Position numbers and translations under genes: made by a program | Notes under the pieces: model-generated | What the model was told of the DNA's origin: nothing | The model's input: only the letters and a program-made list of their open reading frames with translations | Databases searched by the model: none | Shown here: positions 37,625 to 52,022 of the stretch, in pieces | How positions within the stretch are numbered: position 1 is the first letter of the stretch | How the letters are laid out: each line of letters starts with the position of its first letter | Source of the DNA: Streptomyces kronopolitis | Lineage (GTDB): Bacteria > Actinomycetota > Actinomycetes > Streptomycetales > Streptomycetaceae | Assembly: GCF_014646275.1 (NCBI RefSeq) | Contig: NZ_BMND01000019.1 | Coordinates: forward strand, 1-64,000 | Direction: 5' to 3' | Length of the DNA stretch: 64,000 bases

Positions 37625-37737
37625 CGGCGGGAGGGGCGTGCGGAGGTGGCGCAGAAGATATCGTCAACGGCCCTTTTCCTGGCCGCCGGGCTCGGCTCGC
37701 TCCTACGATGCCGGTACCCGGGGGAGAGGTTGTGGGC

Positions 37738-38718
37738 GTGGCACGCAGGACCGCAGAGGCAGGGCAGGCAGGGCGGACACGGCACAGCGTCGAGAATTCC
37801 GTCGCCTGGACCCTCCGCAATCTCGACAGCGTCGTCGCGCTCGGCGCCGCGCTGGTCATCGGGCTGCTCGACGTCTTCGGCGGGGCGATCCAGGACAACG
37901 TCGTCTCCGGCGCGACCCTGCTGGTGCTCGCCGCGCTGGTCTTCGGGACGCTGACCGAGCGCAGACGCCGGGTGGCCGACATCCAGGGCGCGATGTCGGC
38001 GACGCACCGGGCGCTGGAAGACCTCACCATGGTGCGGTCGTTGACCGGCGCCGAGCTGGAGCAGGCCCTGGACCGGGCCCGCCACCGCACCGACCGCTGG
38101 GTGTTCAAGGGCGGCACCGGAACGTACCTGCGTGCGGTGACCCTGCCGGTCTGCATCCGGGAGGCGCAGCTCCAGCGCCGCTCCCTGACCGTCAAGATCG
38201 ACATCATCAACCCGGCGGACGAGCAGGCCTGCGCCGCCTACGCCCGCTTCCGGCAGACCTTCGCGCACCGGCTGGACGTCGTGCCGCCGGACAGCTGGAG
38301 CGCCGACCGCACCCGCAAGGAGTCGTTCGCCACGGTGCTCGCGGCCTGCTGGCACCGGCAGCGGCTCGACACGCTGGAGATCGATGTGCATCTGTCATCG
38401 GTCGTGCCCACTCTGCGCTTCGACCTCTCCGCCTCGTGCCTGATCATCACCCAGGACGACCCCCGGCGGGTCAACCTCCTCGTGGAGCGGGACCGTCCGC
38501 TCTACGACTACTACGTCACCGAACTCCACCAGAGCCGGGAGCAGGCCGTCGCGCTCGACCTGCGGCGCACCGTCCCGCTGAGCGAGGAGCCGACGGTCGA
38601 CGAGACCCTGCGGCTCTTCGAGGGCCTCGGGCTGCCGCTCCCGACGTCCTTCACCGACGGGGACGTCAGCGAGGTCATCGAGAAGGCGCTGCGCGCGGAG
38701 AACCCGTACCGGAGGTGA
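37738..38718 (+). CDS. Two-TM protein with uncharacterised cytoplasmic domain
   Basis: A 326-residue protein. Two membrane helices (about residues 30-50 and 55-75: SVVALGAALVIGLLDVFGG and VVSGATLLVLAALVFG) are followed by a helical linker and a cytoplasmic alpha/beta domain of about 220 residues. That domain carries FKGGTGTYLRAVTLPVCIREA, VKIDIINPADEQACAAYARFR, LRFDLSASCLIITQDDP and LYDYYVTELHQSREQA. I do not recognise the family. The layout of a membrane hairpin plus one soluble domain is common in signalling and defence effectors. The start could be GTG at 37732 or 37738; the second has GAGAGG at better spacing. The next gene starts 8 bp after the stop. Confidence 0.6.
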   Translation: MARRTAEAGQAGRTRHSVENSVAWTLRNLDSVVALGAALVIGLLDVFGGAIQDNVVSGATLLVLAALVFGTLTERRRRVADIQGAMSATHRALEDLTMVRSLTGAELEQALDRARHRTDRWVFKGGTGTYLRAVTLPVCIREAQLQRRSLTVKIDIINPADEQACAAYARFRQTFAHRLDVVPPDSWSADRTRKESFATVLAACWHRQRLDTLEIDVHLSSVVPTLRFDLSASCLIITQDDPRRVNLLVERDRPLYDYYVTELHQSREQAVALDLRRTVPLSEEPTVDETLRLFEGLGLPLPTSFTDGDVSEVIEKALRAENPYRR

Positions 38719-38726
38719 GCTGCCGA

Positions 38727-39404
38727 GTGCACAGTCCCATGGATCACCGACGGCTCGCACGGGCCATGCACCGGCAGGGCGCCCCCGCGGAGGTCTTCGA
38801 GACGGCCGCCTCGGTCCTGGAGGAGATCGCCGCCGGCCGCCGCGGACTGCGCGCGGTGCGCCATCCGCTCGGCTTCGTCTGCTTCCCGGTGGAGCGCGTC
38901 GGCGACCACGGCGTCTGCGTGCACGCGTTCGGCGGCGAGGCGGCCGGGCAGGCGGCCCGGCCGACCACCTCGCCGGTGCACTCGCACAGCTGGGAGCTGA
39001 CCAGTTGTGTGCTGTACGGGGCGGTGGGCAATCTGCGGGTGCGGGTCGTCGAGCGGCCGGCGGAGCCCACCCACCGGGTGTTCGAGGTCCTCAGCCGCCC
39101 CTCGGGCGTGGACGAGATTCAGCCGACTTCCCGGCTGGTGAGCTGCGAGCCGGGCCCTCAGCAGACCAGCCACCGCGGCACGGTGTACACCCTGCCGGCC
39201 GGAGAGTTCCACACCACGGTCGTCCCGGAGGACCGCCCCGCCGCCACGCTGGTGCTCGGCCGGACCCTGCCGGGGCGCTTCGACCTTTCCCTCGGACCGC
39301 TGCACGGCACCGGCCATCGAGTGGTACGACAGGCATGCGACGCCGAGCAGACCGCCCGGACCGCGCGGACCGTGCTCAGGAGGATCCATGACCCCTGCCC
39401 CTGA
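38727..39404 (+). CDS. Cupin-like protein
   Basis: A 225-residue protein with a predicted double-stranded beta-helix. SPVHSHSWELTSCVLYGAVGNLRVRVVE resembles cupin motif 1 (HxH...E...G), and YTLPAGEFHTTVVP motif 2 with its His. A helical N-terminal segment precedes it. The metal and substrate are unknown. The start is probably GTG at 38727, with GGAGG (38711-38715) in the end of the upstream gene; an in-frame ATG at 38739 is too far from it. The last 17 bp overlap the phosphatase gene, so it is the middle member of a coupled three-gene operon. Confidence 0.6.
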   Translation: MHSPMDHRRLARAMHRQGAPAEVFETAASVLEEIAAGRRGLRAVRHPLGFVCFPVERVGDHGVCVHAFGGEAAGQAARPTTSPVHSHSWELTSCVLYGAVGNLRVRVVERPAEPTHRVFEVLSRPSGVDEIQPTSRLVSCEPGPQQTSHRGTVYTLPAGEFHTTVVPEDRPAATLVLGRTLPGRFDLSLGPLHGTGHRVVRQACDAEQTARTARTVLRRIHDPCP

Positions 39405-40260
39405 CAGCCCCTCGGCGCGGTTCGCGGCCGAGCGGGAGCTGGCCGTCGCCGCCGCGCGGGAGGCCGGCGCCCTGCTGCGCTCCCGCTTCCGGGACGACTC
39501 CGACGACTACGGCGTGCGGGCCAAGGGCGACGACGGCGACGTGGTCACCGAACTCGACACGATGGCCGAGGACTTGATCGTCCGCCGGATCCGGGAGCGC
39601 TATCCGCACGACCGGATCCTCGCCGAGGAGGCCGGGGCGCTGGACGGCGACGACGGCGGCCGGGGCACCCCGCGCACCTGGCTGGTCGACCCGCTCGACG
39701 GCAGCAACAACGTCGTCATCGGCCTGCCCGCGTATGTCGTCGGCATCGCCCTGTGCGTGGGCGACGAGGCCGCCGTCGGCGTCGTGCACGACCCGGTCAC
39801 CGACCGGACCTGGACCGCGCTCGCCGGCTGCGGCGCGTACGGGCCGCGGGGCCGGATGACCGGACCCGGGCGCGCGCTGCCGCCCGCCGGGCCGCTGCTC
39901 GCCTGGACCCAGGGGCACGGGGTGGCCCGCGACGATCCGGCGGCACGGGCCCTGAAGGAGGTGCTGGAGGTCCGCTCCCGGCGGCTGCTCCAGCTGTGGG
40001 CGCCGCTGCTGACCTGGGCGATGCTGGCCCGCGGTGCGATCGACGGCTTCGTCGGCTACCGCGCGGAGGCCGTCGACCTGCCCGCCGGCGCGCTGCTCGC
40101 CACGGAGGCGGGGGTGGAGATCCGGGCCCTCGACGGCGGCCCGTTCCGCGGTACCGCCACCGGCCCGGACACCGACCGCAGCTTCGTCGCCGGACGGCCG
40201 GACGCCCTGCCGTATCTGCTGGAGCTGGCCGCGCGCGGAGCGGCGGCCGGCATCCGCTGA
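39388..40260 (+). CDS. Inositol-monophosphatase-family phosphatase
   Basis: A 290-residue Mg2+-dependent phosphatase. Metal ligands are visible as the Glu pair in ILAEEAGAL and the signature WLVDPLDGSNNVVIGLPAYVVGIAL (DPLDGS). The late VDLPAGALLATEAGVEI corresponds to the usual WDxAAG segment but with Val-Asp in place of Trp-Asp. Family members hydrolyse inositol phosphates, fructose-1,6-bisphosphate, histidinol phosphate or 3'-phosphoadenosine nucleotides, so the substrate cannot be assigned. AGGAGG stands 4 nt before the ATG at 39388. Last gene of the operon, convergent with the transporter gene 15 bp away. Confidence 0.88.
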   Translation: MTPAPDSPSARFAAERELAVAAAREAGALLRSRFRDDSDDYGVRAKGDDGDVVTELDTMAEDLIVRRIRERYPHDRILAEEAGALDGDDGGRGTPRTWLVDPLDGSNNVVIGLPAYVVGIALCVGDEAAVGVVHDPVTDRTWTALAGCGAYGPRGRMTGPGRALPPAGPLLAWTQGHGVARDDPAARALKEVLEVRSRRLLQLWAPLLTWAMLARGAIDGFVGYRAEAVDLPAGALLATEAGVEIRALDGGPFRGTATGPDTDRSFVAGRPDALPYLLELAARGAAAGIR

Positions 40261-40275: not shown

Positions 40276-41487
40276 CTAACCGGCCACCGCGAGCGCGACC
40301 GTGGCGGCCGGCAGCGCGACGGCGGCGAGCAGCGCCCCGGTGGCCATGAAGGTCTTCATCGACACCCGCACCCCCTGGGCGTGGCAGCGCTCGAACCACA
40401 GCAGCGTCGCCAGCGAGGCCCACGGGGTCACCACCGGGCCGACGTTCGTCCCGATGAGCAGTGCCAGCAGCTGGTGGTGGTTGCCGGCCGGCACGGCGGC
40501 CTCGCCGGCCAGGTAGACGGGCAGGTTGTTGAGCACGTTGGACAGCCCGCCGCCGACGGACGCGGCGCGCAGCATGCCGGGCAGCCCGGCGTCGGTGCCG
40601 ATGGCGGCCGCCAGCAGCTCGTGGAGCCCGTTCGCGTCGACCGTCTCGACCACCAGGAACAGCCCCGGCACCAGGACCAGCAGCCGCCACGGGACGAGCG
40701 AGAGCCGCAGCGCCTCCCGGCGGCGCACCGCGAACGCCGCCACCACGATGCCGGCGGCCGCCGCCGAGGCCGCCCACAGCGGGATGTCGGCGAGCAGGAT
40801 GGCCAGCAGGAAGCCCGCGCAGACCACCGCGCAGACGCGGAAGAGCGTGCGGTCCGCGGGCCGGTGCGGCGCCGGGGGCGAGTAGCTGCGCGCACCGCGC
40901 CGGCCGGCGCGCCAGAAGAACAGCCACAGGCAGCCCATGGTGACCGCGATGGCCACCAGCTGGGGCGCCCACATCGTGGCCGCCAGCCCGGTGGGGGTGA
41001 GCGCGACGCGGTCCGCCGCCAGCAGGTTCGTCAGGTTCGACACGGGCAGCAGCAGGCTCGCCGTATTGGCCAGCCACACCGTCGTCATGGCCAGCGGCAC
41101 GGGGGCGATCCCCACCCGGGTGGCGAGCGCCAGCATGACGGGGGTGAGCAGCACCGCCGTCGTGTCGAGGTTGAGGGTGATGGTGGTGAGCGAGGCGAAG
41201 GCCACGCACAGCACGAACAGCGCGGCGTAACTGCCCCGCCCGGCGCGCGCCACACCGGCGGCGACCACGTCGAACACCTCGGCCGCGCTGGTGAGTTCGG
41301 CCAGCACGATCACCGTACCGAGGAAGGCGAGCAGCGGGGCTACGCGGAGCATGGCGTCCCCGGCGGACCCGGCCGGCAGCAGCCCGGTGGCCAGGCACAG
41401 CAGACCGCAGGCGAGCATCCCCCCGGCCAGCCAGTCCAGCACATGGAGACGTTGTATGGCGGCACGCACCCGCAAAGCATGGCACAC
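40276..41487 (-). CDS. ArsB/NhaD-type (IT superfamily) ion transporter
   Basis: A 403-residue polytopic protein with about 11 helices. The repeated IT-superfamily signatures are TTITLNLDTTAVLLTPVMLALA plus TASLLLPVSNLTNLLAADR in the first half, and SNVLNNLPVYLAGEA plus IGTNVGPVVTPWASLATLLWFE in the second. Members export arsenite or move sodium/protons or organic anions. No arsenical regulator or reductase is near, so the substrate is open. The start is uncertain: GTG at 41487 or 41469. It is divergent from the TIR-NACHT gene across only 51 bp. Confidence 0.8.
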   Translation of the reverse strand: MCHALRVRAAIQRLHVLDWLAGGMLACGLLCLATGLLPAGSAGDAMLRVAPLLAFLGTVIVLAELTSAAEVFDVVAAGVARAGRGSYAALFVLCVAFASLTTITLNLDTTAVLLTPVMLALATRVGIAPVPLAMTTVWLANTASLLLPVSNLTNLLAADRVALTPTGLAATMWAPQLVAIAVTMGCLWLFFWRAGRRGARSYSPPAPHRPADRTLFRVCAVVCAGFLLAILLADIPLWAASAAAAGIVVAAFAVRRREALRLSLVPWRLLVLVPGLFLVVETVDANGLHELLAAAIGTDAGLPGMLRAASVGGGLSNVLNNLPVYLAGEAAVPAGNHHQLLALLIGTNVGPVVTPWASLATLLWFERCHAQGVRVSMKTFMATGALLAAVALPAATVALAVAG

Positions 41488-41538: not shown

Positions 41539-44500
41539 ATGGGCGGGCGTCAGGAACTTTCGGGGGAAACGCAGCTGCTGGACTTCTTCATCAGCTATTC
41601 ACCGGCCGACGAGCGATGGGCCTCCTGGATCGCCTGGACGCTGGAGGAGGCCGGCTACCGGACCGTCGTGCAGGCCTGGGACTTCGTGGCCGGCACGAAC
41701 TTCGTCGACTTCATGGACCGCGGGGTCAGCGAGTCCGCCGCCGTCATCGCCGTCCTCTCCCGCAACTACGAGCGCTCCCGGTACGGGCGGATGGAGTGGC
41801 AGGCCGCGTTACGCGCCGACCCCGACGCCCCGGAGCGCCGGCTGATCACGGTCCGTACGGAGGACATCCCCGTCGAGGGCCTGCTCGCCACCATCACCTA
41901 CGTCGACCTGGTGGGCGTCAGCGACACCGCCGCCGCCAAGGACCTGCTGCTCACCCGGGTCGGCCAGGCGCTGGAGGGCCGGGCGCGGCCCACCGCGCGC
42001 CCGGGCTTCCCCGGCGGCCCGCAGGCGCGCTCCGCGCCGCCCGCCGTGCCGAGCGTCCCGCGGCCCTCCTCGCACCGCCCGCTCGGGCAGCCGGGCTGGG
42101 CCGGGCGCCGGCGGCCCGCGGTGCCGCCCCGCTACCCGCAGGCCGTGGAGGCGAGCCCGTCCCGGGAGGCCGTCTCGGTGCTGCACCTCGCCGGGCCGTG
42201 CTTCGGCCGCGGCGCCGAACCGGCCGCGCTCCAGGCGGCGATCTGGGGCGATCTGGTCGAACTCGCCGACGCCGGGGCGCCCGAGCCCGACCTCCTGGTC
42301 GTCACTGGCGACCTCACGGCGTCCGGCAGCCCCCGGGAGTGCGAACAGGCGCTCAGCTTCCTGACCGGGCTGCGCTCCCGGCTCGGCCTCGATCCGGACC
42401 GGCTCGCCGTCGTCCCCGGCGGGCAGGACGTCAGCCAGGCCGCCTGCCGGGCCTACTTCAGCACCTGCGAGGCCGACGAGATGCAGCCCCGGCCGCCGTA
42501 CTGGCCGAAGTGGCGGCACTACCACCGGCTGTTCCAGGAGCTCTACCAGGGCCTCGACGTCGTCTTCGACGGCGACCAGCCCTGGAGCCTGTTCCCGGTC
42601 CCGGCCCTGCGCACCGTCGTCGCCGGGCTCAACTCCTCGATGGCGTACAGCCACCGGCCCGACGACCGCTACGGCCTGCTCGGGCCCGAGCAGGCGGCCT
42701 GGTTCGCCCAGGCCCTGCGCCCGTACGAGCAGGAGGGGTGGCTGCGGATCGGGGCGCTGCGCCACCCGGTGGGGGCGGACCGGCCGCTCGCCTCCGACGG
42801 CGGGTCCGGCGCGGCCCCGGACGGCGACCGCGGCCCGCGCCGCGGCAGTGGCCAGGACACCGCGCCCGGCGCCGCGCCGGTCCGCGACGGCGATGTCCTC
42901 GCCCGGCTCACCGGCCCGCGGCTGCATCTGCTGCTGCACGGGCCCGCCGGCGGCCCCCGGGCCGCGTCCGCCGCGCCCACCGCCGCCGCACTCCCCCTCG
43001 CCGCCGGCGAACTCCCGGTCTTCGGCGCCGCCGCCCCGGCCCGGCACCAGCTGCTCCGGATCACCGGCGAGGGCGTCACCCGCTGGCCGGAGCGCTCCGG
43101 CGGGCAGCCGCGGAGCTTCGCCACCGGATGGGGCGGCAGCCGGCGCGTCTTCGGCGGTCCGGAGGCGGCGCCCGCCCCGGGCGGCGAGGCGTCCGGCGCC
43201 CCGGACGCCGCATCGGCCGGGGCCGGTTCCGCGGCGCCCGCGCCGGAGGCCGGCCGCACCGTCGAGGACCCGCTCGACACCCTGATCGCCCGGGTCACCG
43301 AGGTCTGCCGCACCCGCCACGAGGGCGCCCAGCTCCGCCGGGTGCCCGGCGAGGTGCCGCAACTGCTCGTCACGTGGCCGGAGTCCGGGTTCGTCCGGCA
43401 GCAGCGGGTGGCGGTCTGCACCGGCACCCCGCAGCCGGAGTTCGTCGACCGCTTCCTCGACCACCTCCACGCCTCCGATGCGCTGCCGGACGCCGAACTC
43501 GTCCACGACGGCCCGCCCCCGCCGCCGGAGCTGCGCGAGCGGGCCCGCCGCCGCGGGGTGCGGGTGCGCAGCTTCACCGAGTTCCAGGGGCTGCTGGATC
43601 TGCGCGGCTACGTGGCCCGCCAGACCGAGCGGCTCAGCACCGACCTCCCCTACCACCCGAGCCTGTATCTGCCGCAGCGCTACCGCGAGGTGGAGCGGCC
43701 CGGCGGCGCGGAGCGCGACGGGCTCGTCGAGGACATGCTGCGGCTGCTCGACGCCGACCACGGCCGCTTCGTGCTGCTCCTCGGCGACTTCGGCCACGGC
43801 AAGACCTTCGCCCTGCGCGAGCTGGCCCGCCGGCTGCCCGAGGAACTCCCCCGGGCCGTACCGCTGCTGATCGAGCTGAGCACCCTCGACAAGGCCCACA
43901 CCGTCGACGGCCTGGTGGCGGCCCATCTGGCGAACCACGGCGTCGACACCATCGATCTGCGGGCCTTTCGCTACATGCTCCGGCAGGGCCGCATCGTGCT
44001 GCTCTTCGACGGGTTCGACGAACTGGTCAACCAGGTCAGCTACGAGCGCGCCGCCGACCATCTGCAGATGCTGCTGGACGCCGCGGTGGACAACGCCAAG
44101 ATCGTGGTCAGCAGCCGCACCCAGCACTTCAGGTCGCAGGCCCAGGTGCTGACCGCGCTCGGGGAGCGCGTCGGACTGCTGCCGCAGCGCCGGGTCCTGG
44201 CCGTCCAGGAGTTCTCACCCCGCCAGATCCGCACCTACCTGGTGAACCGCTACGGCGACGAGCACGCGGCCGAACGCCGGGTCCGGCTGCTCGAAGGCGT
44301 CCCCGACCTGCTCGCGATGTGCCGCAACCCGCGGCTGCTCAGCTTCGTCGCCGACCTCGACCACGAGCGGCTGCGCGCCGTCGCGGGCGCCGGCCGGGCG
44401 CTGAGCCCTGCGGGGCTGTACGAGGAGGTGTTCACCTCCTGGCTGCGCTACGAGGAGCGCCGCGGCCAGGGCGGTCCCGGCAGCCTGCCCGGGCTGAGCG

Positions 44501-47500
44501 AACGGCAGCTGTGGCGGGGCGTGACGACCCTGGCGCTGCGCCTGTGGGAGAGCGGCCGCAGCGCGCTGCGGCTGGACGAACTCCATGACGTGGGCGAGGT
44601 GCTGACCGGCCTCGCCGACAGCAGGCTCTCCGTGCCGCAGGCCGCCCACGCGGTCGGCTCGGGCAGTCTGCTGCTGCGCACCGAGGACGGCCTGTTCCAG
44701 TTCATCCACGGCTCGGTGGTCGAGTGGCTGGTGGCCCGGGAGGCCGCCGCGCAGCTGGCGGGCGCGGCCCCCGGGGACAGCGGCCTGCTCGCCCGCCGCC
44801 CGCTGAGCCGGCTCGCGGTGGAGTTCCTGTGCGACCTCGCCGACCACCGCACCTGCCAGCAGTGGGCCGAACGCGTGCTGGCCGGCGGTGCCGAGGGGGC
44901 GGAGGGCGAGCCGGGTGCCGCTGCGGAGGGTAGTGAGGCCGCCCGGGCGAACGCGGTCAAGGTCCTCAGCCGCCTGCGGGTGCCGGCCCACACGGATCTG
45001 CGGGGCGCCGTCCTCGCCGGGGAGGACCTCTCCTACCGCGACTTCTCCGGCGTCGACCTCACCCGCGCCGACCTCACCGACGCCGGCCTGGTCGGCGCGG
45101 ACTTCTCCGGCGCGGTGCTGCGCGACGCCTGCCTGGCCGGGGCGCGCCTCGACGAGGCGCGGCTCACCGGCGCGGATCTGCGCGGCGCCGATCTGCGGAT
45201 GGCCCGGCTGATCGGCGCCGAACTCCGCGGCGCCCGGGTGGCCGGCAGCCACTGGCACCGCGCCGCCCTCATCAACACCGTCGCCGACGGCACCACGCTG
45301 GACACCCCAGAGCTGCGGGCGGCGGCCAAGGCGCCCGGCATGCCCGTGGAGGCCGGCTTCCGGCCGTCCGCGGTCGGCGTGCCGTACGGCTTCGACATGC
45401 GCACCAGCAGGCTGCCCGAGCCGGTCTCCTACAGCCCCGACGGCGAACTCCTCGCCGTGGGCAGCGAGGACGGCGGCGTGCTGGTGTGCGATGCCGCGAC
45501 GGGCACGGCGGTGCGCACCCTCCAGGGCCACACCGGCCGGGTCTACGCGGTGAAGTTCCGCGACCGGGTGCTCGCCACCGGCGGCGCGGACGGCACCGTG
45601 CGGCTGTGGGACCCGGTCGCCGGCACCTGCCTGCACCGGCTGGAGGTGCACCCGGACGGGGTGTGGCCGGTGTCCCTGGACGTCGTCGGGGCGCAGCTCG
45701 CGACCGGCGACCGCGAGGGCACGGTCACGGTGTGGGAGGTGGCCGACGGGACCCCGCGGCACCGGCTGTACGGCCACACCGCGCCCGTCTACACCGCGGG
45801 GTTCAGCCCCGACGGCCGCACCCTCGTCACGGGCGACGCGGCCGGTGCGGTGCGCCTGTGGGACACCGCGTCCGGCCGGCTCCTCGGCTCCCTCGACGGC
45901 CATCAGGGGCCCGCCTACCGCGCGCAGTTCAGCCCGGACGGCACCCTGCTGGCCACCGGTGACATGGGCGCGGACGAGCGGGGCACGGTGCGGGTCTGGG
46001 ACGTAGCCGAGCGGCGGCTGCGCCACGAGTTCACCGGTCACACGGGCCGCGTCTACACCCTCGACTTCCACCCCGGCGGCCGGCTGCTCGCCAGCGGCGA
46101 CACCACCGGGCAGGTACGGCTGTGGGACCCGGTGACCGGGGCCGCCGCCGGAGCGCCGGCCGAGGGCGGCGGCCATGTCTACCAGGTGGTCTTCGACCCC
46201 GAGGGGACGATGCTGGCCGCGGGCGGCAGCGACGGATCGGTCCGCCTGTGGCGGGTGGCGCACCGGTCCGGGGACTGGACGGTGACCCCGCTGCGGCAGC
46301 AGCCCGCGGCCCATCAGGGGGCGGTCTGGGCCTGCCGGTTCCGGCCGCGGAGCCGCTTCGGCACCCGGGAGGCCGACCCGGTGCTGGTGACCATCGGCAA
46401 CGAGGGCCTGGTGCGGCTGTGGGACACCTCCACCGGTCAGGGCCGGCGGATCCTGCGCGGCCACGGGCGGCGGATCGCGAGCCTGGCCTTCAGCCCGGAC
46501 GGGACGTATCTGGCGGCCTGCGGCAACGACGGCGTGGTCCGGCTGTGGGAGTCCGCGACCGGCCGCCGCACCCGGGAGTTCGCCGGCGACCACGACCGCC
46601 TGGTCTCGGCGCTGTTCGTCCCCGGCAGCCACCAACTGGCCACCGCCAGCAGCGACGGCGACCTCTACCTCTGGAACGCCCGCACCGGTGAGTACCAGCG
46701 CGAGATCGACGCCGAGACCGACCATGTGTGGGCCGAGGCGTTCAGCACCGACGGCGAGATCCTCGCCACCGCCAACGACGACGACACCGTGGCGCTGTGG
46801 TACCGCAGCACGGGCGCCCGGGTGACCACCCTCGCCGAGCACCGGGGCCGGGTGCGGTCGATCGCGTTCCGGGCGGACGGGACGGGCCTGGCCACCGGCT
46901 GCGACGACCGGTGCGTGCGGCTGTGGGACCTCGCCGAGGGCCGCCTCGTCGCCGAACTCGCGGGCCACACCGCCCGGGTGTACGCGGTGGCCCACGGCCC
47001 CGGTGACGCCTGGCTGGCGAGCGCGTCCTGGGACGGCGAGGCGATCATCTGGCAGGACGGCGCACTGCGCCACCGGCTCCGGGGCCACGTCGGCCGGCTG
47101 TGGACCGCCGCCGCCCATCCGGCGCGGCCGCTGCTGGCCACGGCCGGCGACGACCGGACCGTACGCCTGTGGAACCCGCTGGAGGGCCGGGAGACGGCCC
47201 GGCTGACCGGCCACACCGGCCGCGTGCTCACCCTGGCGTTCAGCCCGGACGGGTCGCTGCTGGCGAGCGGCGGCGAGGACGGCACGGTCCGGCTGTGGGA
47301 CGTCCCCGAGGACGGCGCACCGGCCCCGCGGGCCACGCTGGTCGGTGTGCCGGGCGGCTGGGCGGCGCTGTCCCCCTCGGGCGGCTACAAGTACGACGGT
47401 GACATCGCGGGCGAGTTCTGGCACGTGGTGGGCATGTGCCGGTTCGAGCCCGGCGAACTCGACGACCGGCTGCCCGGGGTCCGGCGCCTCGCGCCGGACG

Positions 47501-47511
47501 ACCCGATCTGA
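41539..47511 (+). CDS. TIR-(pseudo)phosphoesterase-NACHT-pentapeptide-WD40 STAND protein
   Basis: A single 1,990-residue chain. Residues about 12-140 are a TIR domain (FFISYSPADERWASWIA; candidate NADase glutamate at Glu86 in GRMEWQAAL). Residues about 210-470 have a calcineurin-like phosphoesterase fold with nearly all metal ligands replaced. A linker and an alpha/beta segment (about 570-700) precede a NACHT-type NTPase: Walker A GDFGHGKTF near 749, Walker B IVLLFDGFDEL near 820, VVSSRTQHF sensor. About 1152-1240 are pentapeptide repeats (A(D/N)LxxAxL type). About 1296-1955 carry some 15 WD40 repeats, then a cap with FWHVVGMCRFEPGELDDRLPG. WD40 ends sense in STAND proteins, NACHT oligomerises, TIR executes, so an immune or suicide role is inferred. 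The start ATG may be leaderless. Confidence 0.85.
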   Translation: MGGRQELSGETQLLDFFISYSPADERWASWIAWTLEEAGYRTVVQAWDFVAGTNFVDFMDRGVSESAAVIAVLSRNYERSRYGRMEWQAALRADPDAPERRLITVRTEDIPVEGLLATITYVDLVGVSDTAAAKDLLLTRVGQALEGRARPTARPGFPGGPQARSAPPAVPSVPRPSSHRPLGQPGWAGRRRPAVPPRYPQAVEASPSREAVSVLHLAGPCFGRGAEPAALQAAIWGDLVELADAGAPEPDLLVVTGDLTASGSPRECEQALSFLTGLRSRLGLDPDRLAVVPGGQDVSQAACRAYFSTCEADEMQPRPPYWPKWRHYHRLFQELYQGLDVVFDGDQPWSLFPVPALRTVVAGLNSSMAYSHRPDDRYGLLGPEQAAWFAQALRPYEQEGWLRIGALRHPVGADRPLASDGGSGAAPDGDRGPRRGSGQDTAPGAAPVRDGDVLARLTGPRLHLLLHGPAGGPRAASAAPTAAALPLAAGELPVFGAAAPARHQLLRITGEGVTRWPERSGGQPRSFATGWGGSRRVFGGPEAAPAPGGEASGAPDAASAGAGSAAPAPEAGRTVEDPLDTLIARVTEVCRTRHEGAQLRRVPGEVPQLLVTWPESGFVRQQRVAVCTGTPQPEFVDRFLDHLHASDALPDAELVHDGPPPPPELRERARRRGVRVRSFTEFQGLLDLRGYVARQTERLSTDLPYHPSLYLPQRYREVERPGGAERDGLVEDMLRLLDADHGRFVLLLGDFGHGKTFALRELARRLPEELPRAVPLLIELSTLDKAHTVDGLVAAHLANHGVDTIDLRAFRYMLRQGRIVLLFDGFDELVNQVSYERAADHLQMLLDAAVDNAKIVVSSRTQHFRSQAQVLTALGERVGLLPQRRVLAVQEFSPRQIRTYLVNRYGDEHAAERRVRLLEGVPDLLAMCRNPRLLSFVADLDHERLRAVAGAGRALSPAGLYEEVFTSWLRYEERRGQGGPGSLPGLSERQLWRGVTTLALRLWESGRSALRLDELHDVGEVLTGLADSRLSVPQAAHAVGSGSLLLRTEDGLFQFIHGSVVEWLVAREAAAQLAGAAPGDSGLLARRPLSRLAVEFLCDLADHRTCQQWAERVLAGGAEGAEGEPGAAAEGSEAARANAVKVLSRLRVPAHTDLRGAVLAGEDLSYRDFSGVDLTRADLTDAGLVGADFSGAVLRDACLAGARLDEARLTGADLRGADLRMARLIGAELRGARVAGSHWHRAALINTVADGTTLDTPELRAAAKAPGMPVEAGFRPSAVGVPYGFDMRTSRLPEPVSYSPDGELLAVGSEDGGVLVCDAATGTAVRTLQGHTGRVYAVKFRDRVLATGGADGTVRLWDPVAGTCLHRLEVHPDGVWPVSLDVVGAQLATGDREGTVTVWEVADGTPRHRLYGHTAPVYTAGFSPDGRTLVTGDAAGAVRLWDTASGRLLGSLDGHQGPAYRAQFSPDGTLLATGDMGADERGTVRVWDVAERRLRHEFTGHTGRVYTLDFHPGGRLLASGDTTGQVRLWDPVTGAAAGAPAEGGGHVYQVVFDPEGTMLAAGGSDGSVRLWRVAHRSGDWTVTPLRQQPAAHQGAVWACRFRPRSRFGTREADPVLVTIGNEGLVRLWDTSTGQGRRILRGHGRRIASLAFSPDGTYLAACGNDGVVRLWESATGRRTREFAGDHDRLVSALFVPGSHQLATASSDGDLYLWNARTGEYQREIDAETDHVWAEAFSTDGEILATANDDDTVALWYRSTGARVTTLAEHRGRVRSIAFRADGTGLATGCDDRCVRLWDLAEGRLVAELAGHTARVYAVAHGPGDAWLASASWDGEAIIWQDGALRHRLRGHVGRLWTAAAHPARPLLATAGDDRTVRLWNPLEGRETARLTGHTGRVLTLAFSPDGSLLASGGEDGTVRLWDVPEDGAPAPRATLVGVPGGWAALSPSGGYKYDGDIAGEFWHVVGMCRFEPGELDDRLPGVRRLAPDDPI

Positions 47512-47574: not shown

Positions 47575-48534
47575 TCAGCGCTCCCTGCCGCGGGGCTTCA
47601 GCGCCCCCGGCGGCAGCGCCGGAGCCGCCAGCCGGTCGCCGTCGTAGCCCGTCACCTCGCCGAAGCGCGAGCCCGACATCCAGGCCGACCGGGCCTCCTC
47701 GATGTCCGCGTGCGAGCGGCCCACGAAGTTCCACCACATCACGATCCGCTCCTCGAACGGCTCACCGCCCAGGAGCAGCAGGCTGCTGTCGGAGTCGGCG
47801 CGCAGCGGCAGTTCACCGCGGCCGCAGCCGAGGTAGAGCAGGGCGCCGGGGCCCAGGCGGACGCCGTCGACCTCGCTCTCGCCGGAGATGGTCAGCGCCG
47901 CGTACTCGAAGTCGGGGTCGACGGGCAGCCGGGTGTCGGTGCCGGCGGCGAGGGTGAGGTCGGCGCCGACCAGCGGGGAGTAGGTGGCGCCGGGCGAGGT
48001 GGCGCCGTCCAGTTGGCCGAGGAGGACGGTGGCGGACAGCCCGCCGCCCTCGATCACCGGCAGGTCGGTGTGGTGGGCGAAGGCGGGGGCGGTGTCGCGG
48101 TGCGCGTCCGGGAGGGCGACCCACAGCTGGGCACCGTGCAGGAACGGGCCGTGGCCGTGCGGGGATTCCTCGGAGTGCGCGATGGCCCGGCCCGAGGTCA
48201 TCAGGCCCAGCTCCCGGGGCCGCACGGTCTGCAGGCTGCCCAGGCTGTCGCGGTGCAGCACCTCGCCCTGGTGGAGCCAGGTGACGGTCTGCAGACCCAT
48301 GTGCGGATGCGGCGGCACCTGCATACCGGGCTCGGCAACGATGTCGTCGGGCCCGTAGTGGTCGACGAAGCACCAGGCGCCGACCATCCGCCGGCCGAGG
48401 TTCGGCAGCAGTCGGCGGACGACGGTGCTCTCGCCGAGGGGCACCTGCTTGCCGGGCTGGACATCGCGTACCGGGCCGGTGCGGCCGGTGCCGCCGCACA
48501 CGCCGGGCGCGGGTCTGAGGTCGAGGTTGCTCAT
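47575..48534 (-). CDS. Pirin-family bicupin protein
   Basis: A 319-residue pirin. The N-terminal cupin contains VVRRLLPNLGRRMVGAWCFVDHYGP, PHPHMGLQTVTWLHQGEVLHRDSLG (metal His pair and His) and LMTSGRAIAHSEESP (His and Glu), so the iron site appears complete. The C-terminal half is the second cupin. Bacterial pirins have been linked to quercetinase activity and to modulation of pyruvate dehydrogenase; which applies is not visible. It is monocistronic, convergent with the TIR-NACHT gene, and has no strong ribosome site. Confidence 0.93.
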   Translation of the reverse strand: MSNLDLRPAPGVCGGTGRTGPVRDVQPGKQVPLGESTVVRRLLPNLGRRMVGAWCFVDHYGPDDIVAEPGMQVPPHPHMGLQTVTWLHQGEVLHRDSLGSLQTVRPRELGLMTSGRAIAHSEESPHGHGPFLHGAQLWVALPDAHRDTAPAFAHHTDLPVIEGGGLSATVLLGQLDGATSPGATYSPLVGADLTLAAGTDTRLPVDPDFEYAALTISGESEVDGVRLGPGALLYLGCGRGELPLRADSDSSLLLLGGEPFEERIVMWWNFVGRSHADIEEARSAWMSGSRFGEVTGYDGDRLAAPALPPGALKPRGRER

Positions 48535-48600
48535 GGCGTCACGATAGGCGCGGTCGGGCGCGCGGCCCGGGCAGGCGCACGCGGTGCGGAACGGCGCCCG

Positions 48601-49377
48601 TCACGCGTACAGCTCGCGCAGCCGCACCGAGAGGCAGGTCACGCAGCCCTCCAGCTTCTCGAACTCGCCGATGTCCACGAGGACCGGCCGGTATCCCAGG
48701 CCGGCGAGGAGTTCCGCGCTCTTCGGGGCGCTGGCGGCCATCAGCAGCCTGCCGCCGCCGAGCAGGACGACATGGGCGCCGGACTCCTCCGGGACGGGCA
48801 GGAAGCGGGGGAAGAGGGCGGGGTCGTCGACCACCGGCGGGTAGCCGATGACGGTGCCGTCCGGGAGGGCGGTGACCGCGGACTTCAGGTGCAGGACGCG
48901 GCTGACCGGTACGGCGACCACGCGGGCGCCCAACGGCTCGAAGGCGGAGCGGAGTTGACGGATGCCCTCGCCGTCGGTGCGGCCGCCGCGGCCGACGTAG
49001 ACGGTGTCGCCGACCTTGAGGACGTCGCCGCCGTCCAGGGTGCCGGGGGCCCGGACCTCGCCCACGGAGCAGCCGAGGGCCTCCACCGCGGCGCGGGCGG
49101 CGGCCACCTCGGGGCGGCGGGAGCCGGCGCCGGGGCGGGTGAGGAGCGCGACATTGCGGAACATGACCACGGCGTCCTCGATGAAGACCGCGTCGGGGCA
49201 GTCGTCGGCGGGGGCCACTTCGGTGGTCTGCCAGCCGTGGTCGCGCAGCGCCCCGACGTAGGCCTCCCACTGGCGCAGGGCGAGCGCGGGGTCGACCGGG
49301 CGGCGGTCGATGTGGGTGACGAGGCCCTCGGCGAGGCGGGGGCCGGGGCGGCGTATGAGCGCGTGCCGGCTGGGCAT
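48601..49377 (-). CDS. Dimethylarginine dimethylaminohydrolase
   Basis: A 258-residue pentein-fold enzyme resembling DDAH. Conserved elements are the substrate-lid/Asp region DAVFIEDAVVMFRNVALLTRPG, GTLDGGDVLKVGDTVYVGRGGRT, the catalytic His in SRVLHLKSAVT and the C-terminal nucleophile Cys248 in LEGCVTCLSVRLRE. It hydrolyses N-omega-methylated arginines to citrulline plus methylamines; plain arginine deiminase is less likely at this length. The ATG has AAAGGA 6 nt upstream. It follows a YtrA-type GntR gene by 41 bp, so the two are probably one transcript. Confidence 0.88.
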   Translation of the reverse strand: MPSRHALIRRPGPRLAEGLVTHIDRRPVDPALALRQWEAYVGALRDHGWQTTEVAPADDCPDAVFIEDAVVMFRNVALLTRPGAGSRRPEVAAARAAVEALGCSVGEVRAPGTLDGGDVLKVGDTVYVGRGGRTDGEGIRQLRSAFEPLGARVVAVPVSRVLHLKSAVTALPDGTVIGYPPVVDDPALFPRFLPVPEESGAHVVLLGGGRLLMAASAPKSAELLAGLGYRPVLVDIGEFEKLEGCVTCLSVRLRELYA

Positions 49378-49418
49378 GCGGGTCCTTTCGGGCGGCGGGT
49401 GCTGGGTGGCGGTGCGGG

Positions 49419-49808
49419 TCAGGCGCCGGCGCCGTAGGTGGCGCGCAGGGCGTTCTCGGCGGCGGCGAGGGCGGCACGCTGGTCCAGGCCGAGGCGCCGG
49501 ACGCGGCGGGCGTAGGACTCGGCGGCCGCGGCGGCCTCCTTGTCGGCGGCCTCGCCGGCCGCCGCGATGAAGCTGCCGTTGCGGCCGCGGGTCTCGATCA
49601 CCCCGTCGGTCTCCAGGGCGCGGTAGGCCTTGGCGACGGTGTTGGCGGCCAGCCCGAGGTCCTCGGCCAGGCCGCGGACGGTGGGCAGCTTGTAGCCGAC
49701 CGGCAGGGCGCCGTCCCGGGCCTGATCCGCGATCTGGGTGCGTACCTGCTCGAACGGCGCGGCGGACGCGGCCGGGTCGATGGTGAGGGACAAGGTCTGC
49801 GGGGACAC
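49419..49808 (-). CDS. GntR-family regulator, YtrA subfamily
   Basis: A 129-residue short GntR protein: a winged helix (about residues 10-80, FEQVRTQIADQARDGALPVGYKLPTVRGLAEDLGLAANTVAKAYRALETDGVI) and a short helical tail without a ligand domain, as in the YtrA subfamily. Start GTG at 49808 has AGGAG 8 nt upstream; the stop-free extension to 49922 is low-complexity and lacks a ribosome site. YtrA regulators usually sit with ABC transporter genes, but none is adjacent. The downstream partner is the dimethylarginine hydrolase. Confidence 0.88.
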   Translation of the reverse strand: MSPQTLSLTIDPAASAAPFEQVRTQIADQARDGALPVGYKLPTVRGLAEDLGLAANTVAKAYRALETDGVIETRGRNGSFIAAAGEAADKEAAAAAESYARRVRRLGLDQRAALAAAENALRATYGAGA

Positions 49809-49973
49809 GGGGGCGCTCCTGTTGCTGGTGGTGGGGCGGGTGCGCGACGCCTCTCCGCCCCGGGGGCTCCCGGGGTGCGTGAGGTGCGCGGACCCGCCGG
49901 TGCGCTTGTTTGTCGCATCCATTGTGCGTCAGGAGCGCCCGCCGTGCCGGGAGGTGCTATCCCCCGGGGGTGG

Positions 49974-51824
49974 TCACAGTGCGAGGGCGGTGCCGGTCGT
50001 GCGCAGCCAGGCGTTCATGCCGAGGACGAGTTCGGCGGCCGGACGGATGCCGGCGGCCGCCCCGTCGGTGAGGGCGTGCGCGGTGGCGGCGGCGTCCAGC
50101 AGCGGCCGGACGGGGGCGTCGCGGTCGGCGCACAGCGCCTTCAGCTCGGTGCGCAGCGCCTCGCTGTAGCGCGGGTCCTGGGTGCTGGGGTAGGGGCTCT
50201 TGACCCGGTCGGCCACCAGGTCGGGGAGCACCTCGCGGGTGGCGGCGCGCAGCAGCGACTTCTCCCGGCCGTCGAAGGTCTTCATCGCCCAGGGGGTGTT
50301 GAAGACGTAGTCGACGAGGCGGTGGTCGCAGAACGGGACGCGGACCTCCAGGCCGACGGCCATGCTGGCCCGGTCCTTGCGGTCGAGCAGGATCTGCACG
50401 AAGCGGGTCAGATGCAGATAGCTGATCTCGCGCATCCGGCGCTGCAGGCCGGTGTCGCTGTCGAGGTAGGGCACTTCGGCGAGCGCCTCGCGGTAGCGGC
50501 GCCGCTCGTATCCGGGCAGGTCGAGCTTGCCGAGCAGCCCGTGGTCGAGCAGCGCCTCACGGTCGGTGTCGCCGCCGGCGAACCGGCCGGCGATGCCGGC
50601 GGCGATCCAGGGGAACGTGTCGGCGTGGACGGCCGCGGGGTCGTGGAACCAGCGGTAGCCGCCGAAGACCTCGTCCGCGGACTCGCCGGACAGGGCGACC
50701 GTGGACCGTTCGCGGACGGCCTTGAACAGCAGGTAGAGGGAGGTGTCGCCGTCGCCGAAGCCGTTGGGCAGATCGCGGGCGGCGAGCACGGCGGCGCGGT
50801 GGCCGGGGTCCATCAGGTCGGCGGTGTCCAGGACGATGTCGCGGTGGTCGGAGCGGACGTGCTCGGCCAGGGCGTGGGCGTACGGGCCGTCGGGGGTGCC
50901 GCGCAGATCGTCGGGGGTGAAGTTCTCGGTGTAGCCGGTGAAGTCGACGGCGAACGAGCGGACCGGGCCGCGGCCCTGCTCCGCCAGCGCCTTGGCGGCC
51001 AGCGCGGTGATGGCGGAGGAGTCCAGGCCGCCGGAGAGCAGGGTGCACAGCGGCACGTCGGCGATCAGCTGGCGGGCCACGATGTCGTCGAGGAGTTCCC
51101 GTATGTGCGCGACGGTGGTGTCGAGGCCGTCGGTGTGCTCGCGGGCCTCGAGGGCCCAGTAGCGCGTGGTGCGCACGCCGTTGCGGCCGACCCGGACGAC
51201 ATGGCCGGGGCGCACCTCGTGCATGCCCTGGTAGACGGCGTGGCCGGGGGTCTTGGTGAAGGTGATGAGTTCGGCGAGGCCCTCGGCGTCGACGGTGGGG
51301 CGTACCGAGGGGTGGGCGAGGATGGCCTTGGGCTCGGAGCCGAACAGCACGCCGTCGGGGGTGGGGTGGTAGTAGAGCGGCTTGATGCCCATCCGGTCGC
51401 GGATCAGCAGCAGTTCCTCGGTGCGCGGGTCCCAGAGCGCGAAGGCGTACATGCCGTTGAGGTGCTCGGCGCACGCCGCGCCCCACTCGAGGTAGGCGTG
51501 CAGCACCACTTCGGTGTCGCTGTGGGTGCGGAAGGTGTGGCCCAGTCCGGTCAGTTCGCGGCGCAGCTCACGGTAGTTGTAGACCTCGCCGCTGTAGGTG
51601 GTGACGACCAGGGTGCGGCCCTCGTGGTCCACCGCCATGGGCTGGGCGCCGCCGTCGAGGTCGATGACGGCGAGCCTGCGGTGGCCGAACGCGGCGTGGG
51701 TGTCGAGCCAGACCCCGTCCGCGTCGGGCCCGCGGCAGGCCATGGTCCGGGTCATCGTCTCCAGCGTGCGGCGCTGGGTGGTGAGGTCGGTGTCGTAGGA
51801 GATCCATCCGGTGATTCCGCACAT
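49974..51824 (-). CDS. asnB: Glutamine-hydrolysing asparagine synthetase
   Basis: A 616-residue two-domain enzyme. Cys2 of MCGITGWIS is the glutaminase nucleophile, with GHRRLAVIDL and SGEVYNYRELR completing that domain. The synthetase domain has the PPi loop LLSGGLDSSAITALAA and ALSGESADEVFGGYRWF. It makes asparagine from aspartate, ATP and glutamine; homologues can also amidate secondary metabolites, but no pathway genes are near. The ATG at 51824 has AAGGAGGAG upstream. It is divergent from a GNAT gene over a 198-bp gap. Confidence 0.94.
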   Translation of the reverse strand: MCGITGWISYDTDLTTQRRTLETMTRTMACRGPDADGVWLDTHAAFGHRRLAVIDLDGGAQPMAVDHEGRTLVVTTYSGEVYNYRELRRELTGLGHTFRTHSDTEVVLHAYLEWGAACAEHLNGMYAFALWDPRTEELLLIRDRMGIKPLYYHPTPDGVLFGSEPKAILAHPSVRPTVDAEGLAELITFTKTPGHAVYQGMHEVRPGHVVRVGRNGVRTTRYWALEAREHTDGLDTTVAHIRELLDDIVARQLIADVPLCTLLSGGLDSSAITALAAKALAEQGRGPVRSFAVDFTGYTENFTPDDLRGTPDGPYAHALAEHVRSDHRDIVLDTADLMDPGHRAAVLAARDLPNGFGDGDTSLYLLFKAVRERSTVALSGESADEVFGGYRWFHDPAAVHADTFPWIAAGIAGRFAGGDTDREALLDHGLLGKLDLPGYERRRYREALAEVPYLDSDTGLQRRMREISYLHLTRFVQILLDRKDRASMAVGLEVRVPFCDHRLVDYVFNTPWAMKTFDGREKSLLRAATREVLPDLVADRVKSPYPSTQDPRYSEALRTELKALCADRDAPVRPLLDAAATAHALTDGAAAGIRPAAELVLGMNAWLRTTGTALAL

Positions 51825-52022
51825 GAGGCGGCTCCTCCTTCGTGGCATCGGCGGGCCTCCGCGCCACGGCGGCGGCCCACAGCAGCACCGTACGCGCGAA
51901 TAGATGTACAGGCCACTGAAACCGTGCGGCGGCCGTACGGAATGAGCCACGGCCGTCTGCCGCGCCCCGCCCGCCGGAAATTCGGCGGCGCCCGGGCGCA
52001 CCGACGCGTACTGTCCGCCGTC

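What the first reader, a model, noticed from the sequence alone, without database searches (positions are those of the whole stretch)
41539..47511. Single-gene TIR-NACHT-pentapeptide-WD40 protein, a candidate stand-alone immune system
The sequence shows TIR, a phosphoesterase fold, a NACHT-type NTPase with Walker A and B, pentapeptide repeats and about 15 WD40 repeats in one 1,990-residue chain. STAND NTPases with N-terminal TIR effectors are known to act in bacterial antiphage defence and abortive infection by depleting NAD+ once the C-terminal sensor binds its ligand. The insertion of both a phosphoesterase fold and pentapeptide repeats makes this architecture unusual. It sits alone next to an uncharacterised three-gene operon. 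An immune or programmed-death role is inference.
Basis: partly seen in the sequence, partly recalled or inferred. Interest (0 to 1): 0.85.

Follow-up and report, generated by a model that had tools for sequence, protein, structure and literature searches.

The report
Five-gene TIR-NACHT cassette with dead enzymes
A very large bacterial switch protein built like animal and plant immune sensors turns out not to act alone: in many soil actinomycetes it comes with the same four partner genes, and several of the enzyme-like parts in the set have lost catalytic residues, which points to a multi-gene signalling or self-destruct module whose function is untested.

Summary
Three corrections matter.

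(1) An inactive restriction-endonuclease fold (NA-iREase3) was missed.

(2) The phosphoesterase fold is predicted dead: in 76 aligned sequences (window included) motif-I Asp is always Gly and both GHxH His are always lost, while TIR Glu86 and Walker residues are always kept.

(3) It is not stand-alone. A divergent CitMHS/ArsB-type permease gene was found in 77 of 80 loci. Beyond it lies an operon: 2TM pseudo-phospholipase-D protein (F1), cupin-like protein, IMPase-type phosphatase, found in 70, 72 and 71 of the 73 loci with enough upstream DNA, in four actinomycete families.

F1 and iREase3 co-occur: both in 6 of 101 Streptomyces genomes (7 each) and in 18 of 394 class genomes (21 and 37). In DNA fetched around 18 relatives outside the cassette clade I found no cupin or permease; one has a near-intact phosphoesterase and no TIR.

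Best reading: a patchy, co-inherited, membrane-linked TIR-STAND cassette with TIR the only plausible live effector in the big chain. Immunity or cell death is inference: the WD40 part is conserved and no defence island was seen.

The parts
41539..47511 (+). TIR - pseudo-phosphoesterase - NA-iREase3 - NACHT - pentapeptide - WD40 protein, 1,990 aa
   Evidence: 75 homologues aligned with it
41584..41946 (+). TIR_2 domain (aa 16-136); candidate catalytic Glu86 at 41794-41796
   Evidence: PF13676 E 6.5e-35; Glu86 in 76 of 76 sequences
42169..43143 (+). calcineurin-like (metallophosphoesterase) fold, about aa 211-535, metal site degenerate: predicted pseudoenzyme
   Evidence: model; Rv0805, GpdQ, Lmo2642, SMPDL3A; ligand tally
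43276..43602 (+). NA-iREase3, NACHT-associated inactive restriction endonuclease fold (aa 580-688)
   Evidence: PF22739 E 1.2e-39; position; weak MspJI match in Foldseek, E 1.4e-3, that I take to be this domain
43765..44247 (+). NACHT NTPase (about aa 743-903): Walker A GDFGHGKT (K755), Walker B LLFDGFDE (D824, D827)
   Evidence: PF05729 E 5.5e-12; K755, T756, D824, D827 in 76 of 76 sequences
44989..45327 (+). pentapeptide repeats, about aa 1151-1263
   Evidence: PF00805 E 2.2e-31; extent
45406..47358 (+). WD40 repeats (14 Pfam stretches), probably two propellers (inferred from the number), plus a conserved C-terminal tail to 47511
   Evidence: PF00400; length 628-721 aa in 75 sequences
40276..41487 (-). 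permease of the CitMHS/ArsB kind, divergent from the TIR-NACHT gene (51 nt between the called ends; start codon uncertain)
   Evidence: PF03600 E 3.4e-31, PF02040 E 6.6e-25; found on the opposite strand in 77 of 80 loci; start candidates
39388..40260 (+). IMPase-superfamily phosphatase, catalytic motifs intact; overlaps the cupin gene by 17 nt
   Evidence: PF00459 E 1.5e-37; Glu80, Asp101, Asp104, Asp230 invariant in 28 sequences; junction
38715..39404 (+). cupin-like protein (start may be 38715, 38727 or 38739), HxH and a later His conserved
   Evidence: His89, His91, His166 invariant in 31 sequences; PF07883 E 0.059 only, so the family call is weak; no NCBIfam match; one match in own genome
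37708..38718 (+). F1: pseudo-phospholipase-D fold protein with two N-terminal helices that are probably membrane-spanning (start uncertain, 37606-37738)
   Evidence: no Pfam family above cut-off, no NCBIfam match; model; PLD-fold matches; HxK(x)4D in 0 of 53

Best explanation
The gene is the large component of a co-inherited five-gene, membrane-linked TIR-STAND cassette: F1 (2TM pseudo-PLD), cupin-like protein, IMPase-type phosphatase, CitMHS/ArsB permease, and the TIR-pseudoMPE-iREase-NACHT-pentapeptide-WD40 protein. Proposed working: in the resting state the NACHT ATPase holds the chain closed. A signal read by the WD40 and pentapeptide part, possibly a ligand or state produced, transported or guarded by the four partners, lets NACHT exchange nucleotide and oligomerise. 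Clustered TIR domains then act, most likely by cleaving NAD+ or making an NAD+-derived signal, stopping growth or killing the cell. The dead phosphoesterase and dead endonuclease folds serve as scaffold or autoinhibitory parts left from older effectors. The intact phosphatase may set or erase the small-molecule signal. Shown here: gene content, co-occurrence, co-inheritance, folds, loss or retention of catalytic residues. Inferred: oligomerisation, NADase activity, signal, outcome, and the roles of cupin, phosphatase, permease and F1.
For: Linkage: permease gene on the opposite strand in 77 of 80 loci; F1, cupin and phosphatase in 70, 72 and 71 of the 73 loci with at least 3.9 kb upstream, from Streptomycetaceae, Streptosporangiaceae, Thermomonosporaceae and Micromonosporaceae (titles; family labels). 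Linkage survives rearrangement: operon downstream in L056, inverted in L074, 6.6-8 kb away in L088. In five loci of an unnamed family (f90) the cupin is present and a diverged permease (E 9.8e-30 to 2.5e-33) lies downstream instead.
Co-occurrence: Streptomyces, F1 7 and iREase3 7 of the same 101, both in 6; class, F1 21 and iREase3 37 of the same 394, both in 18; outside f90 all 13 iREase3 genomes also have F1. Fisher p 3.8e-8 and 3.7e-18, ignoring phylogeny.
Co-inheritance: distance matrices of F1, cupin, phosphatase and permease against NACHT, r 0.92-0.95, 64 loci. Cassette proteins form one NACHT clade, 30 of 48 rows, support 100/100.
Live and dead parts: Glu86 and Walker residues 76 of 76; phosphoesterase motif-I Asp 0 of 76 and both GHxH His 0 of 76; HKD-type motif 0 of 53 in F1; phosphatase residues invariant in 28.
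Effector turnover: no MPE match in six TIR-iREase-NACHT relatives; near-intact MPE and no TIR in L187.
Against: No activity is shown for any part. The retained Glu does not prove NADase activity: TLR1 and TLR2 have Glu at the aligned place and animal TLR/MyD88 TIRs were the best PDB matches. The WD40 part is conserved and of near-constant length. In the fetched DNA F1+cupin pairs occur without the other genes (L161, L162, L183, L184, L185, L104), and F1-cupin-phosphatase lies 3.8 Mb from a TIR-less iREase3 protein in G685, so the cassette may be two modules that meet often. In 4 of the 18 class genomes with both, F1 and iREase3 are not linked (3 on different contigs). 19 iREase3 genomes, all f90, lack F1. 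Micromonospora L087 has only the permease in the fetched DNA, and L028 and L075 lack F1. NACHT groups follow taxonomic families, so part of the distance correlation is plain vertical descent.
Confidence: 0.55

Rival explanations
1. Stand-alone anti-phage abortive-infection protein: the WD40 part binds a phage ligand and TIR depletes NAD+; the neighbours are irrelevant.
For: NLR-like architecture; patchy distribution; experimentally tested bacterial NACHT and metallophosphatase-NACHT (DS-8) proteins defend against phage (PMC12169576 and PMC13092281, passages read).
Against: Neighbours are conserved and co-inherited. WD40 part not hypervariable. No PADLOC match in the partners and only one marginal one in six other neighbours.
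Confidence: 0.12
2. A homeostasis or stress guard rather than immunity: permease, phosphatase and cupin handle a metabolite or ion, F1 senses the membrane, and the TIR-STAND protein acts only if that pathway fails (self-guarding signalling; TIR may only scaffold).
For: Partners resemble metabolic and transport proteins with intact phosphatase and cupin-type residues. Conserved WD40 part. In Streptosporangiales the cassette often sits beside two gene families found in 16 and 15 loci that I recognise as coaE and rpsA, and the NACHT tree looks mostly vertical.
Against: Patchy presence argues against a needed pathway. The TIR Glu is completely conserved. No substrate is known.
Confidence: 0.25
3. 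Genetic hitchhiking: the five genes stay together by descent from one ancestral locus, without functional coupling.
For: Groups in the NACHT tree follow taxonomy; F1+cupin can occur alone.
Against: Linkage is kept after inversion and separation (L056, L074, L088) and with a different permease in a different place. The outer flank is not kept: pirin, the next gene downstream in the window, is in 1 of 80 loci.
Confidence: 0.08

Closest known systems
Bacterial NACHT (bNACHT) NLR-related proteins, e.g. bNACHT25 (PMC12169576, passages read)
   Same: Tripartite plan: N-terminal effector, central NACHT, C-terminal sensor.
   Different: bNACHT25 has a DNase effector and the passages name no partner operon; here TIR plus two dead enzyme folds, pentapeptide and WD40 repeats, and four conserved partner genes. 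Only weak matches to the antiphage NACHT models EruA and HyoA (E about 1e-3, far below cut-off).
DS-8 and DS-9, metallophosphatase systems of DefensePredictor (PMC13092281, passages read)
   Same: DS-8 joins a metallophosphatase and NACHT in one chain; the NCBIfam model DS9_1_antiphage, by its name presumably from DS-9, matches aa 247-409 (E 1.5e-10, below cut-off).
   Different: DS-8 and DS-9 need predicted catalytic residues of that domain; here most of the metal-binding residues are lost in all 76 sequences and a TIR precedes the domain.
STAND conflict systems of multicellular bacteria (Kaur et al. 2020 and 2021, PMC7159879 and PMC8195603; passages read)
   Same: TIR, calcineurin-type enzymes, NACHT, pentapeptide and propeller domains named among the parts of multi-gene conflict systems of multicellular bacteria.
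   Different: The passages I read do not describe this domain order or this set of partners. The ternary systems there centre on MoxR and vWA proteins, not among the five products here.
Thoeris and other TIR NADase defences (recalled)
   Same: TIR as NAD+-consuming effector is the working model.
   Different: TIR is fused to NACHT here; no Thoeris model of PADLOC matched the main protein or the partners.

Membership tests
STAND NTPase, NACHT clade (NLR-like proteins) | NACHT P-loop NTPase with Walker A and B | tested here: met
   PF05729 E 5.5e-12; K755, T756, D824, D827 in 76 of 76 sequences
STAND NTPase, NACHT clade (NLR-like proteins) | N-terminal effector-type domain and C-terminal repeats | tested here: met
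   TIR_2, pentapeptide and WD40
STAND NTPase, NACHT clade (NLR-like proteins) | ligand-driven oligomerisation | not testable with these tools
   needs biochemistry or cryo-EM
TIR NADase effectors | catalytic Glu in the conserved helix | tested here: met
   Glu86 in 76 of 76; aligned Glu also in TLR1 and TLR2, so not sufficient
TIR NADase effectors | NAD+ cleavage | not testable with these tools
   no assay
Calcineurin-like metallophosphoesterase, active (DS-8/DS-9 type) | fold | tested here: met
   VIA Z 21.4, rmsd 3.2, 224 aligned to 2hyo, Rv0805; top row 9a6c_B, an integrative model, Z 22.6
Calcineurin-like metallophosphoesterase, active (DS-8/DS-9 type) | metal-binding DxH, GD, GNH, GHxH residues (motifs recalled) | tested here: not met
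   Asp I 0 of 76, His I 0 of 76, Asp II 62, Asn III 7, His III 14, His IV 76, GHxH His 0 and 0 of 76
Phospholipase D superfamily, active (for F1) | fold | tested here: met
   VIA Z 11.2, rmsd 3.0, 149 aligned to SauUSI; many PLD-fold rows at Z 8-11, along with TrmB-type sugar-binding domains
Phospholipase D superfamily, active (for F1) | HxK(x)4D motif (recalled) | tested here: not met
   0 of 53; HxK alone in 4 of 53
IMPase superfamily (phosphatase gene) | family match and catalytic Glu/Asp residues | tested here: met
   PF00459 E 1.5e-37; residues invariant in 28; best PDB IMPase E 2.4e-42
Cupin superfamily (cupin gene) | significant family match with metal-binding His | tested here: inconclusive
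   PF07883 E 0.059 only, no convincing PDB relative, though His89, His91, His166 are invariant in 31
Catalogued anti-phage system (PADLOC 2.0) | match to a catalogued system | tested here: not met
   main protein: only partial TIR or WD40 hits to other systems; no hit for the four partners
Anti-phage defence | protection against phage | not testable with these tools
   needs plaque assays

The most novel reading that the evidence does not exclude
An undescribed kind of bacterial innate-immune or cell-death module: a membrane sensor unit (pseudo-PLD F1 and cupin) and a small-molecule unit (phosphatase and permease) set or report a specific metabolite to an apoptosome-like TIR-NACHT-WD40 protein, in which two successive former effectors (endonuclease, phosphoesterase) were kept as dead structural parts after TIR took over.
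Probability: 0.25. Interest if true: 0.85.

Novelty: new variant of a known kind. Interest (0 to 1): 0.6.

Why it matters
Bacterial NLR-like proteins are often studied as single-gene systems with one live effector. Here a TIR-STAND protein keeps four partner genes across several actinomycete families. Relatives also appear to record effector replacement inside one chain: a near-intact phosphoesterase without TIR, TIR with a decayed phosphoesterase, and TIR with none. That makes two questions testable: whether pseudoenzyme folds in STAND proteins are working scaffolds, and what small molecule or membrane state such a protein reads. If it is a death switch, it would be a multi-gene one in a multicellular bacterial lineage.

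Tried and rejected
Considered and rejected or left open: (a) stand-alone gene, rejected by neighbourhood and co-occurrence. (b) Active second effector (phosphoesterase), rejected on ligand loss. (c) Hypervariable phage-sensing WD40, not seen in cassette members; one non-cassette relative (L180) does have near-identical blades. (d) Phage- or plasmid-borne spread: no F1 relative in viral contigs (the main protein was not searched there). The one plasmid-collection record with the main protein at over half identity, and the only one with F1 over 80%, is an 11.85 Mb Nonomuraea 'plasmid' record, which is chromosome-sized. Two other plasmids carry a distant F1+cupin-like pair. (e) Phylum-wide samples were uninformative: F1 and iREase3 each matched in 2 of 396 genomes, the window's own and one weak, short match. 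(f) Promoter and terminator scan gave nothing above chance. (g) PDB sequence searches found no relative of F1, none of the NACHT part at E 0.01, and no convincing one of the cupin. (h) My first PADLOC and NCBIfam runs on neighbours included shadow reading frames opposite real genes; they were repeated on the likely real genes. (i) A search of the own genome with the main protein gave no second full-length copy (13 matches).

Literature: the listings of eight searches showed nothing that describes this cassette. Passages of PMC8195603, PMC7159879, PMC13092281, PMC12169576 and PMC10907252 were read, none in full.

Rows dropped before counts: the alignment used 75 of 80 loci plus the window; left out were L048, L051, L059 and L072 (cut by contig ends or lacking the N-terminus in frame) and L082 (frame broken). 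The NACHT tree used 24 of those 75 loci, the window and 23 fetched relatives; four further cassette loci (L189, L190, L191, L194) were left out by choice. The distance test used the 64 loci with all genes at near-typical length. Alignments A1 to A5 used redundancy-reduced or hand-picked subsets. The scan kept the best 80 of 192 relatives, so its counts describe those only. The 101- and 394-genome samples overlap.
Full report
CHECK OF THE OBSERVATION. The ORF 41539-47511 (+) is open over 1,990 codons from an ATG with coding-type GC by codon position (0.78/0.55/0.96). The named domains are there: TIR_2 (E 6.5e-35), NACHT (5.5e-12) and Pentapeptide (2.2e-31), and WD40 with 14 stretches (6.6e-117). 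The calcineurin-type phosphoesterase is below Pfam's cut-off by sequence (PF00149 E 0.0037), but the model of aa 205-710 (mean pLDDT 79.7) matches Rv0805 (Foldseek E 5.8e-11; VIA Z 21.4, rmsd 3.2, 224 residues for 2hyo), GpdQ, Lmo2642 and SMPDL3A; the top VIA row is an integrative model, 9a6c_B, Z 22.6.

HOMOLOGUES. A pattern-and-tblastn scan of one genome for each of 84,980 species gave 192 relatives, of which the best 80 loci were kept: Streptomyces, Kitasatospora, Streptacidiphilus, Streptosporangium, Nonomuraea, Sphaerisporangium, Herbidospora, Acrocarpospora, Actinomadura, Micromonospora, Plantactinospora and one Streptosporangiaceae MAG. Seventy-five of these align with the window over its domains (L068 lacks the last residues). 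Over the 76 sequences, Glu86, Walker K755 and T756, D824 and D827 are invariant. The phosphoesterase motif-I Asp is Gly in all 76, its His is never His, and the two GHxH His are never His; Asp II is kept in 62, Asn III in 7, His III in 14, His IV in 76. So the chain has a TIR that looks live and a phosphoesterase that looks dead. The endonuclease fold is 'inactive' by Pfam's family name; I did not tally its active site.

NOT ALONE. Clustering and a directed tblastn of the neighbours (recounted) show a permease gene of the CitMHS/ArsB kind, always on the opposite strand, in 77 of 80 loci; the other three (L048, L051, L059) are cut by contig ends or lack the N-terminus in frame. Seventy-three loci have at least 3.9 kb upstream. 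Of these, 70 hold F1, 72 the cupin and 71 the phosphatase. Missing: F1 in L028, L075, L087; cupin in L087; phosphatase in L085 and L087. The outer flank is not kept: pirin, the next gene downstream of the window protein, is found in 1 of 80. In L056 the F1-cupin-phosphatase operon lies downstream, in L074 it is inverted, and in L088 it is 6.6-8 kb away. In the window the phosphatase start overlaps the cupin end by 17 nt and the cupin frame may start 4 nt inside F1, as expected of an operon.

CO-OCCURRENCE. In the same 101 Streptomyces genomes, iREase3 is in 7 and F1 in 7, six of them shared. The exceptions are G049 (F1 and cupin only, L104) and G010 (a phosphatase fragment, permease and a TIR-NACHT gene with a broken frame; L105). 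In the same 394 class genomes, F1 is in 21 and iREase3 in 37, 18 shared. In 14 of these 18 the two lie within 18 kb on one contig; G685 has them 3.8 Mb apart, and G703, G727 and G791 on different contigs. F1 without iREase3: 3 genomes. iREase3 without F1: 19 genomes, all in one unnamed family (f90); outside f90 all 13 iREase3 genomes have F1. Fisher p is 3.8e-8 and 3.7e-18, without correction for shared ancestry. Distances of F1, cupin, phosphatase and permease track those of NACHT (r 0.92-0.95, 64 loci). Shared descent explains part of that.

RELATIVES OUTSIDE THE CASSETTE. Family f90 may be Frankiaceae (a guess from genome sizes and several copies per genome). Regions fetched from it and elsewhere were scanned with profiles. 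Six proteins are TIR-iREase-NACHT with no phosphoesterase match (L164, L168, L175, L177, L179, L181). Others have a phosphoesterase domain in different states of decay. L187 has GD, GNHD and GHTH intact (motif I reads D-V-Q), scores above the Pfam cut-off (E 7.9e-12), and has no TIR in the 2 kb upstream that I read. In the NACHT tree (48 rows) 30 rows form one fully supported clade. It contains all 25 cassette rows used and five f90 proteins (L165, L172, L176, L192, L193) that have the cupin nearby and a diverged permease downstream; two of these five (L192, L193) also have F1 and the phosphatase. In the 11-18 kb fetched around each of the other 18 rows neither cupin nor permease was found. 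I read this as effector turnover, phosphoesterase to TIR, with the old domain kept as structure; the direction is inferred, since the tree is midpoint-rooted.

THE PARTNERS. F1: two N-terminal helices (low confidence, membrane character inferred) and a well-predicted PLD-type domain, with matches to SauUSI, NucT, FAM83B, phosphatidylserine synthase, Zucchini and TrmB-type domains but no HKD-type motif in 53 of 53. Phosphatase: IMPase family with invariant catalytic residues; substrate unknown. Cupin-like protein: conserved HxH and His but no significant family match. Permease: CitMHS/ArsB; substrate unknown. None of the four matches a PADLOC model. F1+cupin pairs occur alone in the fetched DNA of two plasmids (Methylobacterium L161, Rhodococcus L162) and of L183, L184 and L185. 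In L184 and L185 the pair lies beside genes I recognise as coaE and rpsA, the place where full cassettes sit in many of the Streptosporangiales loci. So F1+cupin may be one sub-module and TIR-NACHT with permease and cupin another.

MECHANISM. Best-supported: an NLR-like switch whose TIR is the effector, embedded in a membrane-linked set that sets, transports or reports its signal. Shown: parts, linkage, conservation and loss of residues. Inferred: oligomerisation, NAD+ cleavage, nature of the signal, growth arrest or death. The conserved, near-constant WD40 part (628-721 residues in 75 sequences; 44-59% identity to the window in four sampled loci from other families) fits an internal or fixed ligand better than fast-changing phage proteins, though a conserved phage feature cannot be excluded.

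COMPARISON AND NOVELTY. It works like bacterial NACHT/NLR-related proteins and meets their sequence criteria. It resembles DS-8, which joins a metallophosphatase and NACHT, but DS-8 needs that active site (PMC13092281, passages) and here it is gone. PADLOC has no matching system. Eight paper searches listed nothing describing the cassette; I read passages, not whole papers, and no supplements. I rate it a new variant of a known kind: the domains are known, but I found no description of the conserved gene set or of its pseudoenzyme content.

Noticed in passing
L161:7689-9240 and L162:7794-9330: Distant F1+cupin-like pairs on a Methylobacterium and a Rhodococcus plasmid, both near a recombinase gene and ParA. 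In L161 an ORC-CDC6-like NTPase, a metallophosphoesterase with a weak calcineurin-associated wHTH match, a Dam methylase and a CHAT protein lie alongside.
   Followed up: partly
L180:2523-8288: Non-cassette TIR-MPE-iREase-NACHT relative whose WD40 blades are nearly identical to each other, as in recently amplified sensors; unlike the cassette members.
   Followed up: no
L106 (G005), L105 (G010), L082: TIR-NACHT reading frame broken (frame changes inside the gene) in two of the seven iREase3-positive Streptomyces genomes and in S. lilacinus L082: decay or assembly error.
   Followed up: no
L186 (G685:C1:731000-749000): F1-cupin-phosphatase operon without the TIR-NACHT gene nearby; the genome's iREase3 protein lies 3.8 Mb away and lacks TIR.
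   Followed up: partly
window 34899-37624: LytR-CpsA-Psr and FtsW/RodA-type genes directly upstream of F1, overlapping head to tail as called.
   Followed up: no
window 47575-52811: Downstream of the TIR-NACHT gene, all on the - strand: pirin, a dimethylargininase (NCBIfam, above cut-off), a GntR regulator and an asparagine synthase.
   Followed up: no
own genome G000:C13:117042-130187: A second TIR-like region (32% identity) and a pentapeptide region about 12 kb apart in the same genome.
   Followed up: no
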